The translations under genes and the position numbers were made by a program. A stretch of DNA of 64,000 nt, taken from NCBI GenBank assembly GCA_033439795.1, contig JAUTDP010000006.1:992001-1056000 (forward strand), in the 5' to 3' direction. Source of the DNA: Sordaria brevicollis. Lineage: Eukaryota > Ascomycota > Sordariomycetes > Sordariales > Sordariaceae. This document shows, in pieces, positions 20,556 through 56,096 of the stretch. The notes beneath the pieces are model-generated. The model was not told the DNA's origin. It saw only the letters and a list, made by a program, of their open reading frames with translations, and did not search any database. Within the stretch, counting starts at the first letter, position 1; each line of letters starts with the position of its first letter.

Positions 20556-22532
20556 ATGGGCAAACCCCCAGCATACCTTTTCGTTGTGAGGTAAGCTGAA
20601 CTTCTTGTGTACCTTGATGGCCATGGCGTTCTCTTCAGCTCGGCCTTTTGTGACTATTGTGTCTTTCACCTTGTCAGAACGATGTAGCTGACCACGCCAT
20701 CAAACAGGCACGGATTGCGCCTCGATGTAGCCGACAAGAACTGGCATCTGTCATCACCTACACCTTACGATCCTCCCCTCACCTACAGCGGCTGGAACCA
20801 AGCCAAAAACCTCGGGGCCCGGATAGCGAACATCATTCGAGACAGAGTCAAGGAAGACGAATCAACTGCCAAGATCGCAGCGCAAAACGACCCTTCTGCA
20901 AAACCGAAGCGCAAACGTTACGAAGTCGTCATTCATAGCTCTCCGTTTTTGCGATGCATCCAAACCTCCGTTGCCATCAGTGCTGGCTTGGCACAAGATT
21001 CGACCCCATTCGGACCCTCTACGGGCGGCGACAACAAGGAGACTTCGGGGAGCTTTGCCCACGGCCACCGAGCAAGGCCGTCAACCGCGTCCGATTCCGC
21101 TTCTGGTCCAGCACCGTTAAAGATAGTCCAAGGATCGCCCATCCGCAAATCCGTGCTCCGGTTAGATGCCTTCCTGGGAGAGTGGCTATCTCCAGGCTAC
21201 TACGAACTCATTAGCCCACCTCCCGAGTCTGTCATGATGCTTGCAAGTGCCAAGGCAGATCTCCTCAGACGCGAAGATTACAGCAGCTACCCTAATTTCA
21301 ACGCCTATAACCACTCAAACCTCCAAGGGCAGCTTTGGAGCCCAACCGCGCAGCGCACGCACAGTCCTCTTTCTCCGACCATCAGCTCAGTGGATCCCTT
21401 GGAAAAGGATGACCTGTCTAGTATAGCAAGTTCTCTGCCCAGGAGTGAGAGTGCCAGTAGCCAGAGCACCTGCCAGTCCCAACCTGATTCCACCGTGCAG
21501 TCGGCCACCCAACCCTTCCCAGCCATGGGTTACGTTCCTCCAGTTCCCCATTACGCAGTCAATAACAATAACACTATTCCTCCGGGCTATGTCGCACATG
21601 CTCGGGATGCTTGCTGTGATATTGACTACCAATGGGATTCCATGCGGCCTCCTTTGAACTGGGGTGACGGTGGATCTTTCCCCGAGGAATGGACTTCAAT
21701 GCATAAAAGGTTTGGCACAGGTATCCAACAGCTAGTTGACTGGTACTCTATGGCGGACCATCCCACCAAAATGGTTACTAAGACAGTCTCACGATTCGGC
21801 CGGAGAGATTCGGCCCAGGCCCAGGAACCCGAAGATAGTGACGACGTCGAGACAGAGGCCGTAGTCATCCTGGTATCACATGGTGCTGGCTGCAATGCAT
21901 TGATTGGTGCCATCACCCATCAACCAGTTCTCGCAGATGTTGCTATGGCCTCACTCACCATGGCAGTTCGCAAGCCGGACCCAGAGCTACATGAGAGCGT
22001 CCAACGTTGTCAAAAGGAAAAGACGCCCATCCATCATTACTACGATCTCAAGCTGTTTGCCAACACAGACCACCTTCGCACTCCTGGCCAAGCACCGAAC
22101 CTGTCACGGTCTACCTCCATCTCTGTCGCTAGTGTTGCCGCTGCCCGGAACCGCTACACTCATTCCCACTCTGTGTCCTCGGCGAACTTCTCCTACCAAG
22201 ACATTGTGGGAGGCAAAGGTGGCGTATCTAACAGTCCTTTGAGTGCCAGTCGCAGAGGCTCTAGTGGCTCCTCCACGACACCTAGGTTTGTGTTTGGGAC
22301 GAGTGCCAATAACGGTACCGGAGGGGGTATCACGGTTGGAAGTGGTGTCTCGTCGTTCGGCCTGAGTAAGCCTTCGACTCTGTCAAACCTTGGACGTAAG
22401 CCGTCCATGGGACTTTGGTCACCTACCAGCCTCCGCAACAGTACCGGATTTGACGATGAGGATGACGACGACAACATGGTTCTGAACTTTGGTACTCCAG
22501 CCAACGACTCCAAGCCGGCGATGAAGTCGTGA
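20556..22532 (+). CDS. Histidine phosphatase (phosphoglycerate mutase-like) superfamily protein
   Basis: The predicted protein has 619 aa in two exons: 20556-20590 and 20708-22532 (117-nt intron). The splice restores the catalytic RHG motif: exon 1 ends VV-AG and exon 2 begins G-CAC-GGA, giving AYLFVVRHGLRLD with His13 as the phospho-acceptor. Downstream are the expected Arg motif (IHSSPFLRCIQTS) and the second catalytic His in VILVSHGAGCNAL. Between the two halves lies a large insertion of roughly 200 residues, rich in Ser and Pro. The C-terminal 170 residues are Ser/Gly/Asn-rich and end in an acidic DDEDDDDN stretch. Classic phosphoglycerate mutases have about 250 aa, so a glycolytic role is unlikely and a regulatory phosphatase is more plausible. 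The substrate is unknown. The low-complexity tail suggests a disordered region. Confidence 0.88.
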
Positions 22533-47960: not shown

Positions 47961-50900
47961 ATGGCAGACGTCCTAGGCTACGGCTTGGTTAGTCTTGGTC
48001 TATGGCCATGCTATAGCTGTTGCCGGGAATTCTGGGTATGTCTCTGCAAATATTTCCTCACCCTCCTTCCCTGAGTTTCATGTCACTCGGGCCTTCAAGC
48101 CACACGGATACCGTATCCGAGCCTTTCCCACCACCCTGCTTACGCCGTCTTCAAGTCACACCCGAGGTTGTTTCGCAGACAAATCGTTAACATCACATCT
48201 ACAGATACCCTCTCTCGCCAACTTTGGACCACACTGTCTTGGAGTAGTCGGCCACATTCCCGTCTGGATCTCGCTCTTGGTTTTTGTACTTCACTATGCA
48301 TCGCTCTGGCTCGATCGATGGCGCCCCATCTGGTTACGGAACTTCACGGCGAAGCACGATGAAGACAGGCTGCTAAACTACGATCAAGAAACCGGCTCCA
48401 ACTATGACGAAAGCTTCGAAGATACTCCGTTATTGTCACGCCAAAGGCCCATTGTGCTTTCTCGCAAGAAGATATGGACACGCTGGACGTTGTGTCTGCT
48501 GATGCTCAATGTCACTGGTACCATCATCAGCATGCTTGGTGCCGTCCTGGTCCATCGAAGCCCCACTGAAGTCCAGCTACATCTCATACCTCTTATCCCC
48601 AATGTAAGATGCGATATTTTGATGATAGACCGAGGCAACCATTAGACTTCCTGCTGACTTCCGGCGTAGATGCTATCGGCATTACTCATTCTTGTTGATC
48701 GGCCTAGGACTGTCCGAAGATCGCTCTTTATCATCGCCGCAACGCTTCTCTCCGTTCAGCTCGCAGTCACCACACTTGCCCCAAGTGCCATCGGAACGAC
48801 ATGGAAATGCCTTACAACCTGGGCTGGAGGCATTTGCGTTACTCTGGCATCTGTCATTGTCATGCTCAATATGCCACTGCGAGACCCGCTGTTGAGTACG
48901 TCCAAGATTGGAAAGCCTTTCGCCAAGCCGGATTCCAGTGTACGAAGCCCCGAGGATATGGTCACTCTTTGGCAGTGGATGTCTGTCTCTTGGATGGCAC
49001 CCCTGATATCTGTTGCCGGCAAGAGGCAACTACACGATAAAGACGTATGGCTGCTGGCGTCCGACTTCCAACACCAGCAACTACACCTTCTGTTTCGAGA
49101 CTTGACTGGCACCGTACTCGTTCGACTACTCAGGGCGAATGGGCTTGATATCATCCTGACCATATGCCTCGGCACCCTCGAGACCCTAGCCGAGCTGTCG
49201 GAACCCATCCTACTCAAGCAACTTCTCTATTCACTCATGTCCGAAACATCCAGCAAACGGACGGCCCTCATCTATACCAGCCTTATTCTCATCGCGAGAC
49301 TTCTCAAAGCTCAATCCGGGGTTTTCAAAATATGGTACGAAAGACGCAACTACGAGCGGTCGCGAGGTGAAATGATCACCATGATCCACGACAAAACTTT
49401 GCGCCGGAAGGCCTTCACTATCGCAGTGGAACCGCCAACACCAACCTCACAGACTACTTTGCTTGGGGAAGAGGATCATAATGTGGATGATCTTGATACT
49501 GAAGACTCTAAACTTAATCGACTCCAGGGTCTCAAGGCTTGGGCCCAGGGGATCTACCGAGGCGCAAAACAAAGCTCCGGGCTTCCATCTCGGAAAGAAA
49601 ACGAGGCACCTGCATCGACTGGAAAAATCCTCAACCTCCTTCGGGGTGACGTGTACGAGGTAGCCCAGAGATTTTGGGAGGTGTCAACGATTGTCACAAG
49701 ACCACTCAGTGTCAGCCTTTCGATCTACCTTCTGTACGAGATCCTGGGGTCTGCCTCGTTGTTCGGCGTCCTTGTCATCATCCTCGGCATGTTTGTGAAT
49801 TCCTTCATGATGCGCTTCCTAGAGAGGGTAGAGCATGAACGCCGTTCTATCACCGATGAAAAGCTGGAGCGCACCAGTCAGTTCGTGGATTCACTCCGTC
49901 ATCTTCGCTGGTACGATTGGCAGGACCGATGGCTTGGTCACATTATGGAAATTCGACAGAAAGAGTTGTTCCAACGCATCAAAAGCAATGTGGTCGGCAG
50001 AGGCATCAACATCATCAACAACACGACATCCTACATGTTTCCCGTTGTTGGGTTCGCCGCCTATACCCTCCTTCTGCGCAAGCCTCTGACTGTCGACATT
50101 GCCTTTCCGGCTCTTGGCCTATTTACTACGTTGCAGAATAACCTCCGCGAACTACCTCCGCTGTGGACAAATCTTATCAACGCCAGGGTTGCCATGCGTC
50201 GAATTGAGGCTTTCATGTTGGAGCCAGACAAGGACGACAACGAGGAAAAAGAACCACCCGCCGCTGCCTACCTCCTGGGTAGTCCGGAAATTTCTGTCCG
50301 CAATGCATCTTTCTCGTGGCCAGGCTCCGATACAACTGTGCTGAACGATGTCTCATTTGCTTGTGAGCCAGGCCTAACTTTGGTCTGTGGTAAAGTTGGT
50401 ATAGGCAAGACAGCATTGCTGCAGGCCATTTTGGGCGAGCTTGACCAGCATTCCGGGGAGAAGAACGTCCCTGCCGAGATGATTGGATACTGCGCTCAAA
50501 TGCCGTGGCTTGAGAGCATGAGTATCCGTGACAACATCTTATTCAGTACTCCCTTTGACGAGACGCGGTACTGGCAGGTTCTCAGGGCATGCTGCCTTGC
50601 GGAAGATCTCAAGAAATTCAAGGCAGGAGATCGTTCTCTGATTGGAGAAAATGGAGTTGGCCTCTCAGGCGGACAACGAGCTCGTGTGGCTTTGGCCCGA
50701 GCTGTCTATAGCAGAAGTCGAGTTCTCCTGCTCGATGACCCTATTGCTGCTCTTGACCACCAAACTGCCGAAAGCATCGCACGCAACCTCTTTGCCGACA
50801 AGAACTCGCCACTCATTGCTGGCCGGCTGATCGTATTGGTTACTCACCGTGTTGATATTGTTAAGCACTATGCATACCAGGTTCTGGATATCGTTGCCGG

Positions 50901-52862
50901 TGGACTGGTCAAGACATTTGACAGAAGGGGGATTGCGGAACACGAGAAGGAACTGGAAGAACAGGCTGCTATCGCACCGGAGATGTCACCACGCTCCGGG
51001 TCTTCTTCCGGTCAAAGCACCGAGGCTTCCTCATCCGAAGATGAGGCCGAGATGGCGACGATTGCTGCCAAGTTCATGCAGGAAGAACACCGGGTACATG
51101 GTGGTGTTATGGCCACCGTCTACTGGCAGTACAGTATGTCAAGGCCGGTAAATATTCTTGGTGGGCCGCGATGGTTCTGTTCTGTTTACTCATCCGGTTG
51201 ACCAACCTCGGGTATAGCTGGTTCTTGAAGGAATGGGGTGAACAATATCGGAAGCCCGCTGAGCTGGATCATGGGCTACAAACTTTCACTCTCCTCTCGC
51301 ACCCCAACTTCAAAACTGATGGCATCATTGACCCTGGTCGACAGCTTCCTTCACCCGACGAGAATGTACGGCCCTGGCTTTTTTGGCTGACCATTATCGC
51401 GCTGGTCCAGATTCTGTTTGAGGCTTGCTCCGATATTGCCCTCATCGCCATCATCTACAATGCTGGGAAAACCCTCTTCGCTAAGGCCATGCACTGCGTC
51501 ACGAATGCCACATTCCGCTTCTATGATGTGACACCCGTTGGCCGGCTCATGAACCGTCTTACCTCCGACATTGGCACAATCGACGGGCAGATTGCGGTCC
51601 AGCTAGTACAGCTCGCGTTATACTCTCTAGGCTGGATGACCTCGATGTTCGTGATAGCAACAGCAACACCGATCTTCATCGTGCTCAGCGTTGGCATGAC
51701 CGTCTTGTTCGTCTATATGTATCAGCGATATCTACCAGCATCACAGGACCTGCGCCGTCTGGAAATGGTCTCTCTGTCGCCGCTTTTGTCGAATTTTGGA
51801 ACGCTTCTCGAGGGCTTGACCACCGTACGTGCCTTCCGCGCCGAACCGCATTTTCAAAACCGCATTATTGCTACAACCGATGACTTCCAGAAGATGGACC
51901 ACATCTACTGGTCGCTACAAGCCTGGTTACAATACCGCTTTGATATGGTGTCAGGCTTCTCGGTCTACGCCCTGACCCTGACAGCCATTTTCCACGGGCT
52001 TTCCAGCGGTATGGTAGGCTTCGTACTAGCCGCCGCCGCGAGCTTTGTGGAGAGTACGCACCAAGTATGCCGTAAATACGGAGACATGCAAATGCAGTTT
52101 GTCAGCGTCGAGCGCATCATCGAGCTTCTGGCCCTCGAGCAGGAGCAGGCAAACACAGACAATCCGCCGCCAGCTGGTTGGCCTTTTTATACCGACGACA
52201 TTGTTTTCGACAAGGTCACGTTGCGCTACGCACCGGAGCTCGATCCCGTTCTGACGGACGTCAGCTTGGTGATTCCTGGCGGCTCGACTGTGGCCGTGAC
52301 CGGTAGAACCGGTTCCGGCAAGAGCACGCTGGCATACGCCTTGCTAAGCACGATCCAGCCTGATGCGGACACAGGCGGCCAGATCCGCATTGGCTCAATA
52401 GACATTGCCAAAGTAGACAAGCACATCCTGCGCCGACACATAACTTTTGTAGCGCAGGATCCAGTACTCTTTGCCGGTACACTACGGGACAACCTTGACC
52501 CACTGTACGAGCACGATGAGGACGAGCGGGCTAAGGTTCTGAAAACGGTCCTGGACAATGGATTCACGCTTGACACCAGGGTGGACGGCGGAGGCAAGAA
52601 TCTCAGCCAGGGCCAGCGCCAGTTGGTGGGCCTAGGCAGGGCGATTCTACGAAGGAGTGCCATTGTGATCATGGACGAGGCGACGGCGAGCATCGATGTG
52701 GAGACGGCGGCGTACATTCACCAATTGCTCAGGAGAGAGTTGAGTCACAGTACCGTGATTACGATTGCCCACAAAGTGGAGGCGGTTAAGGACGCGGACT
52801 TTGAGATTGTGCTGGATAAAGGGAAGGTGGTCAAAGCCGGGAAAAGAACTCCGAAGTCTTAG
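47961..52862 (+). CDS. ABCC-family full ABC transporter, frameshifted by a 5-bp duplication
   Basis: Three exons: 47961-48035, 48205-48603 and 48670-52862. Ignoring the duplication at 51127-51136, the protein would have about 1553 aa with the layout N-terminal membrane region, TMD1, NBD1, TMD2, NBD2 (MRP/bile-acid-type vacuolar or plasma-membrane exporter). NBD1 has Walker A GKVGIGKTALL (about residue 731), signature LSGGQRARVALARA (about 822) and Walker B LLLDDP, where the usual catalytic Glu is replaced by Pro. NBD2 has GRTGSGKSTL (about 1368), LSQGQRQLVGLGRA (about 1467) and IVIMDEATASID, a canonical site. Such asymmetry is normal for ABCC. As written, the frame shifts near residue 977 and stops at 51201, giving about 1001 aa without the second half. 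The remainder is open from 51138 to 52862. This is either a recent null allele or a sequence error. Confidence 0.85.
51127..51136 (+). other. Frameshifting 5-bp tandem duplication (CAGTA twice)
   Basis: The sequence TGG-CAGTA-CAGTA-TGTC lies in the linker before TMD2. Removing one copy gives an unbroken reading, YWQYVKAGKYSWW, in the expected family context. Keeping both shifts the frame and leads to a stop at 51201. An intron of this size is impossible, so splicing does not explain it. Confidence 0.85.
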
Positions 52863-54148: not shown

Positions 54149-56096
54149 TTAAAGAAGAGCGATAACCAAACCAGCAACACCCAACAATCCACCCCTGGCA
54201 ACGGCGTTGCCGTTGGCAGCACCGATAATGGGAGGGGGAGGAACAGCGCTGGAGCTGGGGACGACGACGCTAGGAACGACGACGGAGCTGATGATGCTCG
54301 GAACAGCGCTGGTGACGACGGGAGGGGGGACAGCGGGGCCGGAAGAGCTAGGGACAGGAACGGGGCCGGCGCTGGTGCTCTCGACGGGGGGAGGAACGAC
54401 GACACCGGTGGAGGTGGCGGTGGCGGTGCTCAAGCTGGGAAGGACGTCGCTGGAGCTCTCAACAGGGGGAGGAACAACGACGCCGGTGGAGGTAGCGGTA
54501 GCAGTGCTCAACGAAACATCCGAGGTGACGGACGGCATGGTGACGGGCACCGAGGAGATAACGCTGGGCAAACTGACAGGAGGCACCGAGGACTCAGCGG
54601 AAGTAGTGGGCTCGGGCTCAACAGGGCAGACAGTGGTGCCGATGGTGATGGTCTCGGTGGTGACGGTGGTCGAGCCGGCCGGGCAGTCGGTGACGGTGAT
54701 GGGGCACTTGGTGATGGTGTGAGTGGTGGTGGTGACGATGGTGCTGGTGGTCCACTCGACGGAAGAGGAGGAAGACTCCACGGGACCAGCGGAGGAGGTG
54801 ACGGTGGGGATGGTGACGGGGGCCGAGGAGACGACGCTGGACAGGCTGGACTGGGTGACGGGCACCGAGGAAGGGGGAACGACGACATCGGAAGTAGAGG
54901 GCTCGGGCTCCTCGTCGGTGCATCCATCGTCGGTGGTCGAGGGCTCAGGGGCAGAGCTGCTGACGGCGGAGCTGGGAGGGACGGTAATAGTGACATCCGT
55001 AGAAGGCTCGGGCTCTTCGTCATCGCAACCGTCATCAGTAGTAGAAGGCTCAGGGGCGGAGGTCACGACCGAGCTAGGAGGAGCGGTAATGGAAGCCGAG
55101 GTAGGGGGAACAGTCACATCGGTCGATGGCTCGGGCTCCTCATCATCACAGCCATCATCGGTAGTCGAAGGCTCGGGAGCAGAGCTGGTGACGGCAGAGG
55201 TAGGAGGGACGGTAATAGTGACGTCCGTGGAAGGCTCAGGCTCATCATCGCAATCCTCATCGGTGGTCGACGGCTCAGGGGCGGAGCTAGTGACAGCAGA
55301 AGTGGGAGGGACGGTGATGGTGACATCCGTGGAAGGCTCAGGCTCATCATCGCAGTCCTCATCGGTGGTCGAAGGCTCAGGAGCAGAGCTGGTAACGGCC
55401 GAAGTGGGAGGAACGGTAATAGTGGAAGGCTCGGTGGAAGGCTCAGGCTCATCATCGCAATCCTCATCGGTGGTCGAAGGCTCGGGGGCAGAGCTGGTGA
55501 CGGCGGAAGTGGGAGGAACGGTGATAGTAACATGGGTAGAAGGCTCGGTCGAGGGCTCAGGCTCATCCTCACAGTCCGAGTCATCATCATCCACAGTCGT
55601 AGTTGAAGCGGGAGGGGCACTCGTCGCGGTCGAAGTAGGCGGCTGGGTGATGTCGGGGGTAGAGGTAACCGTCACACTGGGCTCGGGCTCCTCGTCGTCA
55701 CAGTCCGAGTCCTCTCCATCATCAACGGCCGTCGTCGTCACGGGAGGAGCGCTGGTCTTGGTGGTAGGCGCCTCGCTCGTGTGGGTAGCGGTATAAGTGA
55801 CGCAGGAGCAGGCAGAGCTGACAGCCGCGCGATCACCACCACAGTTCTCCAAGTAGTCCGCAATATCAGGAGTGGTTCCGGCCAAGAACCCAGGGCAGAA
55901 CTCCTTCGCCTGAGCATAAAACCGCTTGTCCGTCATCTCATTGTAGCAGTTGTCAGCGTCCTGATATCCCGTGTTAGTCCATGTCTTGTCTTGGCTTGAA
56001 TACTATGAAGGAGTGACCACTTACACAGTCAGGATAAGACCATGCCTGGGCCAGGCCGAGGGAAACGGCGCCCAAAGCAAGAGTAGCGGCGCGCAT
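54149..56096 (-). CDS. GPI-anchored-type cell-wall protein with acidic Cys/Pro/Ser/Thr repeats
   Basis: The predicted protein has 627 aa in two exons: 56025-56096 and 54149-55960 (64-nt intron, GTAAGT donor, ATCAG acceptor). A signal peptide covers residues 1-18 (ending GLAQA). A small Cys domain follows (PDCDADNCYNE, EFCPGFLAG, YLENCGG, ACSCVTY). Then come about eight tandem units, each built on D-C-(D/E)-(D/E)-EPEPST followed by VTVPPTSAVTSSAPEPSTTD, then Ser/Thr/Val/Pro-rich sequence and a hydrophobic C-terminus (GGLLGVAGLVIALL) with small residues before it (GAANGN), as in a GPI signal. The protein is likely wall-linked and heavily O-mannosylated. The repeat leaves long antisense frames open on the plus strand. 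A TATA box lies about 270 bases upstream. Confidence 0.85.
54660..55760 (-). repeat. Tandem coding repeat array in the wall protein
   Basis: About eight imperfect units of roughly 100 bases. Each encodes one Cys in an acidic cluster (DCDDEPEPST and variants), then a Thr/Ser/Pro-rich segment. Unit sequences are close enough in the middle of the array to suggest recent duplication, while the outer units are more diverged. Length variation between strains is likely. Confidence 0.75.

What the first reader, a model, noticed from the sequence alone, without database searches (positions are those of the whole stretch)
51127..51136. Five-base tandem duplication breaks an otherwise intact ABCC transporter
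Seen: CAGTA is repeated exactly in tandem, and the reading frame of a full ABC transporter switches at that point. Deleting one copy gives a continuous family-like linker (WQYVKAG). The rest of the gene, including both nucleotide-binding domains, is undamaged, so the change must be recent or an assembly error. Inference: a strain-specific null allele, or a half-transporter of about 1000 aa with TMD1 and NBD1 only.
Basis: partly seen in the sequence, partly recalled or inferred. Interest (0 to 1): 0.75.

Follow-up and report, generated by a model that had tools for sequence, protein, structure and literature searches.

The report
Frameshifted ABCC transporter gene in fungus
In a mould related to Neurospora, a small repeated stretch of five bases throws a membrane-pump gene out of frame halfway through, most likely an ordinary recent gene-breaking mutation (or, less likely, an error in the genome assembly).

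Summary
CAGTA is repeated in tandem at 51127-51136, and the frame of an otherwise intact ABCC gene switches there: frame A (48670-51201) carries TMD1-NBD1, frame B (51045-52862) TMD2-NBD2. The repeat alone is not beyond chance (7 tandem 5-mer starts in the gene region, about 5 in shuffles); the frame switch is what counts. Of the 120 best homologues, 118 run straight across the junction; the closest is 91% identical. Homologues place the 53-Mb genome in Sordariaceae. The 301-bp stretch has one copy there. I found no convincing rescue by splicing or -1 frameshifting. Constraint does not differ detectably between the halves, so the break looks young. The half-transporter idea is disfavoured: NBD1 lacks the catalytic glutamate here and in 117 of 117 parsed relatives (120 examined). 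Best reading: a recent, ordinary null allele. An assembly error and strain-specificity cannot be settled without reads or other strains. Frameshift variants are reported in tens of thousands in N. crassa (PMC13412767, passages). Low interest.

The parts
47961..48035 (+). predicted exon 1 (start codon ATG 47961)
   Evidence: in frame with the downstream exons, GTATGT donor follows; not confirmed by a relative
48036..48204 (+). predicted intron 1 (169 nt, GTATGT...CAG)
48205..48603 (+). predicted exon 2
48604..48669 (+). predicted intron 2 (66 nt, GTAAGA...TAG); the join reads LIPN-MLSALLILVDRP, as in P0005 (LIPN-ILSALLILVDRP)
48670..51201 (+). frame A open stretch: TMD1 and NBD1; after the conserved W at 51124 come 24 residues (QY as in the family, then 22 without family counterpart) and TGA
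49615..50142 (+). ABC_membrane (PF00664) match, TMD1
50341..50745 (+). ABC_tran (PF00005) match, NBD1; Walker A GKVGIGKT, signature LSGGQ, degenerate Walker B LLLDD
51127..51136 (+). tandem CAGTA CAGTA at which the frame switches
51045..52862 (+). frame B open stretch; family-like from 51132 on: TMD2 and NBD2
51315..51980 (+). ABC_membrane (PF00664) match, TMD2
52251..52688 (+). ABC_tran (PF00005) match, NBD2; Walker A GRTGSGKS, signature LSQGQ, Walker B IVIMDE

Best explanation
A recent 5-bp tandem duplication, of the kind made by replication slippage or fill-in end joining (mechanism inferred), put a single-copy full-length ABCC transporter gene of a Sordariaceae fungus out of frame at the elbow just before TMD2. 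Shown: the repeat, the frame switch, both intact halves, and the uninterrupted relatives. Inferred: the reading frame of the mRNA ends at 51201, leaving the 1661 nt up to the frame B stop untranslated. It therefore yields no transporter, because TMD2 and NBD2, which hold the only consensus catalytic glutamate, are lost; nonsense-mediated decay is likely. That makes it an ordinary loss-of-function allele, tolerated because this transporter is probably dispensable.
For: Frame switch and repeat. Of the best 120 homologues of frame A (4701 passed the E-value cut; 120 listed and examined), 118 are contiguous over the junction with zero intervening residues, alignment ends extrapolated, and 117 of those 118 keep a Y-V/I-K-A-G-like elbow. 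The nearest, P0003 (91%), P0004 (83%) and P0005 from Neurospora tetrasperma (79%), all read continuously. One copy of the 301-bp stretch in the genome; the next best own-genome matches by E-value are 33% and 31% identical. No convincing splice or -1 frameshift rescue. Changes on this lineage against the sister's: 34:16 before the junction, 15:9 after it, Fisher p=0.79 between halves, so the part behind the break is not detectably more relaxed. NBD1 D-D in 117 of 117 parsed and NBD2 D-E in 111 of 111 parsed (120 examined; 3 and 9 not parsed). A study of 100 N. crassa strains reports 31,808 and 8,773 frameshift variants in its two clades (PMC13412767, passages seen).
Against: No reads and no second strain, so a local assembly error is not excluded; an intact second half is equally expected if the true sequence has one copy and the gene works. 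No transcript or protein data. Over both halves this lineage has more changes than the sister's (49:25, p=0.007), and its changes are on average less conservative (mean BLOSUM62 0.24 against 0.63 before, 0.20 against 1.11 after the junction), which could mean somewhat longer relaxation of the whole gene; a control gene leans the same way in number (16:10, 15:11 or 13:10 by outgroup) and the ratios do not differ.
Confidence: 0.66

Rival explanations
1. Assembly or polishing error: the organism's gene has no duplication and makes a normal ABCC transporter.
For: Everything else in the gene is intact: 605 codons open in frame B, and no detectably looser constraint behind the junction than before it. 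No reads were available.
Against: A 5-base tandem copy outside a homopolymer is not the usual long-read indel error (recalled; the sequencing method here is unknown). 53 Mb in 27 contigs is a contiguous assembly. For three families in the same genome, the 15 breaks between successive matches of one gene that I found in the tables imply inserts of 49-291 nt, as introns would give; one of them (HSP70, C6) abuts at the DNA level and was read as an intron only because 22 model positions overlap. In one search only 9 of 148 candidates were scored. The control exon of 614 codons is unbroken.
Confidence: 0.25
2. The break is bypassed: an intron, a programmed ribosomal frameshift or split cistrons give a working full transporter or two half-proteins.
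For: The two open frames overlap (51045-51201). One fair donor (GTACAT at 51094) pairs in the right phase with two acceptors behind the repeat's first copy (51134, 41 nt, CAG; 51143, 50 nt, AAG). Frame B has an ATG at 51171 with G at -3 and +4.
Against: Those introns are very short, have no YTRAY branch-point match and would remove at least 12 family residues including the conserved HGG-VYW stretch. No strict X-XXY-YYZ heptamer lies in the overlap. A start at 51171 would cut away the elbow and lies far behind a long ORF. None of the 118 contiguous relatives shows such an arrangement.
Confidence: 0.05
3. A functional TMD1-NBD1 half-transporter of about 1000 aa.
For: The truncated frame is open and long (1001 aa with predicted introns).
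Against: NBD1 lacks the Walker B glutamate here and in 117 of 117 parsed relatives. The product ends in 22 residues without family counterpart. Among the 120 listed hits only P0063 (1077 aa, stops after TMD2) and P0074 (719 aa, stops within NBD1) are shorter than 1100 aa; neither is a TMD1-NBD1 protein of this length.
Confidence: 0.02
4. Excision footprint of a transposon with a 5-bp target duplication.
For: Five duplicated bases match the target-site length of some element classes (recalled).
Against: The two copies are directly adjacent with no extra base between them; LTR elements, which make 5-bp duplications, do not excise cleanly (recalled).
Confidence: 0.02

Closest known systems
Fungal full-length ABC-C (MRP-type) transporters; some homologues carry source names such as 'ABC bile acid transporter' or 'ATP-dependent bile acid permease'
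   Same: TMD1-NBD1-TMD2-NBD2 order with Pfam PF00664 and PF00005 in each half; asymmetric NBDs with degenerate NBD1 Walker B and the Y-V/I-K-A-G elbow before TMD2; ABCC2, ABCC4, MRP1 and Ycf1 among the solved relatives of the second half; a hydrophobic N-terminal region by eye
   Different: Here the frame is broken between NBD1 and TMD2; which of the seven ABC-C groups of Kovalchuk and Driessen 2010 (PMC2848647, passages seen) it belongs to was not determined
Frameshift variants in Neurospora crassa populations (PMC13412767, passages seen)
   Same: Small indel that destroys a reading frame
   Different: Population frequency unknown here; the species is a relative in Sordariaceae, not shown to be N. 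crassa

Membership tests
ABCC (ABC subfamily C) full transporter | two ABC membrane domains and two ABC ATPase domains in TMD-NBD-TMD-NBD order | tested here: met
   Pfam, the two frames searched apart; met at the DNA level only, since no single frame encodes it
ABCC (ABC subfamily C) full transporter | asymmetric ATP sites: NBD1 Walker B without catalytic Glu, NBD2 with it | tested here: met
   LLLDD in frame A, IVIMDE in frame B
ABCC (ABC subfamily C) full transporter | one continuous reading frame over both halves | tested here: not met
   frame switch at 51127-51136; relatives 118 of 120 contiguous
Frameshift null allele / young pseudogene | frame-disrupting change absent from close relatives | tested here: met
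   at the protein level; no nucleotide sequence of a relative was available
Frameshift null allele / young pseudogene | present in the organism's DNA (not an assembly error) | not testable with these tools
   no reads; indirect check on three families
Frameshift null allele / young pseudogene | no rescue by splicing or recoding | tested here: inconclusive
   no convincing signal by sequence; no RNA or protein data
Ybt1-like group of fungal ABC-C | clusters with yeast Ybt1 in a subfamily tree | not tested
   only source names of some homologues suggest it
Functional half-size ABC transporter | NBD able to form a hydrolysing site as a homodimer (Walker B Glu) | tested here: not met
   D-D in NBD1

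The most novel reading that the evidence does not exclude
The two overlapping frames are both translated in this lineage (by a cryptic intron, recoding, or an independent start in frame B), so that a full-length ABCC gene is being split into two cooperating half-proteins, or the gene is switched off and on by gain and loss of one repeat unit.
Probability: 0.03. Interest if true: 0.6.

Novelty: new member of a known kind. Interest (0 to 1): 0.12.

Why it matters
If real, it is one more natural loss of a poorly characterised fungal ABC-C transporter, useful as a natural null for asking what the pump moves and whether it is dispensable. It changes no general picture. If it is an assembly error, it matters only for annotation.

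Tried and rejected
Chance repeat: rejected as an explanation of the frame switch, although the repeat alone is within chance.

Intron over the repeat: all GT/GC-AG pairs of the right phase with donors between 50950 and 51198 and lengths of 20-399 nt were counted (157). Two passed the donor, length (40-250 nt) and pyrimidine-AG filter, one of which spans the repeat (51094-51134). Of the nine pairs under 60 nt that span the repeat, one more uses the same donor, with an AAG acceptor (51094-51143, 50 nt). Neither holds a YTRAY branch-point match.

-1 recoding: no strict slippery heptamer in the overlap; two half matches lie behind the repeat. Other kinds of recoding were not scanned.

Relaxed second half: not seen (15:9 after against 34:16 before the junction; Fisher p=0.79). 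The whole-gene excess on this lineage (49:25) does not differ from a control gene. The control sister P0243 and the ABCC sister P0003 are both unnamed Logan proteins and may not be the same species; sites with gaps were left out, and sites where all three differ (20 and 9) were not assigned to a lineage.

A motif count by regular expression found no match in 105 of 242 proteins (the pattern was narrow, and some proteins may lack the stretch). It was replaced by the two-piece alignment. There 2 of 120 were not contiguous: P0074 (719 aa) ends within NBD1, and P0104 (Verticillium longisporum) has its best second-piece alignment starting 113 residues late, although its sequence reads EYIKAG at the junction.

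The second protein search, with frame B, was meant to find split or fragment gene models of close relatives. Its best listed hit of at least 90% coverage is 65% identical, so no close Sordariaceae fragment model showed up among the 120 listed.

Literature: (listings), with passages from PMC2848647 and PMC13412767. I saw no paper on this allele in those listings. One search returned nothing, and nothing was used.

Full report
What is there. The window lies in a 53.08-Mb genome of 27 contigs. The bases at 51127-51136 are CAGTA CAGTA. Frame A is open from 48670 to the TGA at 51199-51201; frame B is open from 51045 to 52862. Searched apart, frame A holds one ABC membrane domain and one ABC ATPase domain, and frame B holds another pair. 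Two predicted introns (48036-48204 and 48604-48669) and a start at 47961 complete the 5' end. The predicted product then ends at 1001 aa, with 22 residues without family counterpart at its end. Intron 2 fits P0005; exon 1 and intron 1 were not confirmed by a relative.

Is it more than chance. Tandem 5-mers are common: 7 starts in the gene region against 5.0 in shuffles, and 216 in the window against 65. The coincidence with a frame switch is what matters. One search found 4701 proteins over the E-value cut among the 7997 candidates scored; the best 120 were listed and examined. Of these, 118 carry the end of piece A and the start of piece B with no residue between them (local alignment ends extrapolated), and 117 of the 118 show a Y-V/I-K-A-G-like elbow. 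The two exceptions are a protein that ends within NBD1 (P0074) and one with a late-starting local alignment (P0104). The closest relatives P0003 (91%), P0004 (83%) and P0005 (Neurospora tetrasperma, 79%) are all continuous. These are predicted proteins, and a gene caller could in principle hide a break, but the same conserved residues in so many proteins make that unlikely.

Which organism. The control exon at 20688-22532 is 95% identical to an unnamed protein, 89% to one of Sordaria macrospora and 91% to one of Neurospora sp. IMI 360204; the other named hits listed reach at most 59%. Sordaria macrospora and Neurospora tetrasperma are Sordariaceae, so the genome most likely belongs to that family.

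Is there another copy. The 301 bp around the junction occur once in the genome. The next best own-genome matches by E-value to the two pieces are 33% and 31% identical. So the assembly, as far as these searches show, holds no second, unbroken copy.

Can the break be bypassed. I counted 157 right-phase splice pairs in the region. One fair donor (51094) pairs across the repeat with acceptors at 51134 (41 nt) and 51143 (50 nt); neither intron has a branch-point match, and each would remove at least 12 residues including a conserved stretch. No strict -1 slippery heptamer lies in the overlap. Frame B has an ATG at 51171 with G at -3 and +4, but a protein from there would lack the elbow before TMD2. 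I consider bypass unlikely.

How old. With P0004 as outgroup, this lineage has 34 changes and the sister P0003 16 before the junction (753 sites), and 15 and 9 after it (574 sites). The halves do not differ (Fisher p=0.79). Overall 49:25 is uneven (p=0.007), and this lineage's changes are on average less conservative than the sister's. A control gene gives 16:10, 15:11 or 13:10 depending on outgroup, not different from 49:25 (p 0.46-0.81), though the control is small. Frame B is open for 605 codons. So the break looks young, or is not real; some relaxation of the whole gene before it is possible.

Assembly error or allele. No reads were available. In searches for Sugar_tr (9 of 148 candidates scored), HSP70 and ABC_membrane in the same genome, the 15 breaks that I found between successive matches of one gene imply inserts of 49-291 nt, as introns would give. 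One HSP70 pair on C6 abuts at the DNA level and was read as an intron because 22 model positions overlap. I picked these pairs by hand from the tables; matches with stops inside were read as introns without further check. This argues only weakly against an error-prone assembly and says nothing about this one site.

Consequence. In ABCC transporters NBD1 has a degenerate Walker B (recalled as a family trait). Here it is LLLDD, and D-D in 117 of 117 parsed relatives (3 of 120 not parsed); NBD2 has D-E here and in 111 of 111 parsed (9 of 120 not parsed). A TMD1-NBD1 product would thus have no consensus catalytic glutamate, so the half-transporter idea is disfavoured. A null is the simplest outcome.

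What is known. Kovalchuk and Driessen describe fungal ABC-C proteins as full-length and, outside yeast, poorly characterised, and mention putative ABC-C pseudogenes in A. oryzae (PMC2848647, passages). Among 100 N. crassa strains 31,808 and 8,773 frameshift variants were reported in two clades (PMC13412767, passages). A single frameshifted transporter is therefore ordinary. Verdict: real observation, ordinary explanation, about 0.66 for a real recent null and 0.25 for an assembly error.

Noticed in passing
51285-51298: Two residues (TL) are present here that P0003, P0004 and P0005 lack; the DNA holds CTCTCCTCTC, so a second, in-frame micro-insertion of 6 nt may have occurred in this lineage.
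   Followed up: partly
47961-52862 against relatives: No protein named from Sordaria macrospora or Neurospora sp. IMI 360204 appears among the 120 listed hits or, although both appear for the control gene. The transporter may be missing or broken there too, or hidden in 90% clusters or under unnamed entries.
   Followed up: no
54149-56002 (- strand): A long reverse-strand frame of 617 aa rich in Thr, Ser and Pro (17%, 16%, 15%), with near-repeats by eye and no Pfam match; possibly a cell-surface protein.
   Followed up: partly
G000:C23:2000746-2001633: An ABC membrane match with one in-frame TAA inside a 1401-aa stretch; the match (296 codons) is longer than the 273 model positions, so an in-frame intron is likely.
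   Followed up: no
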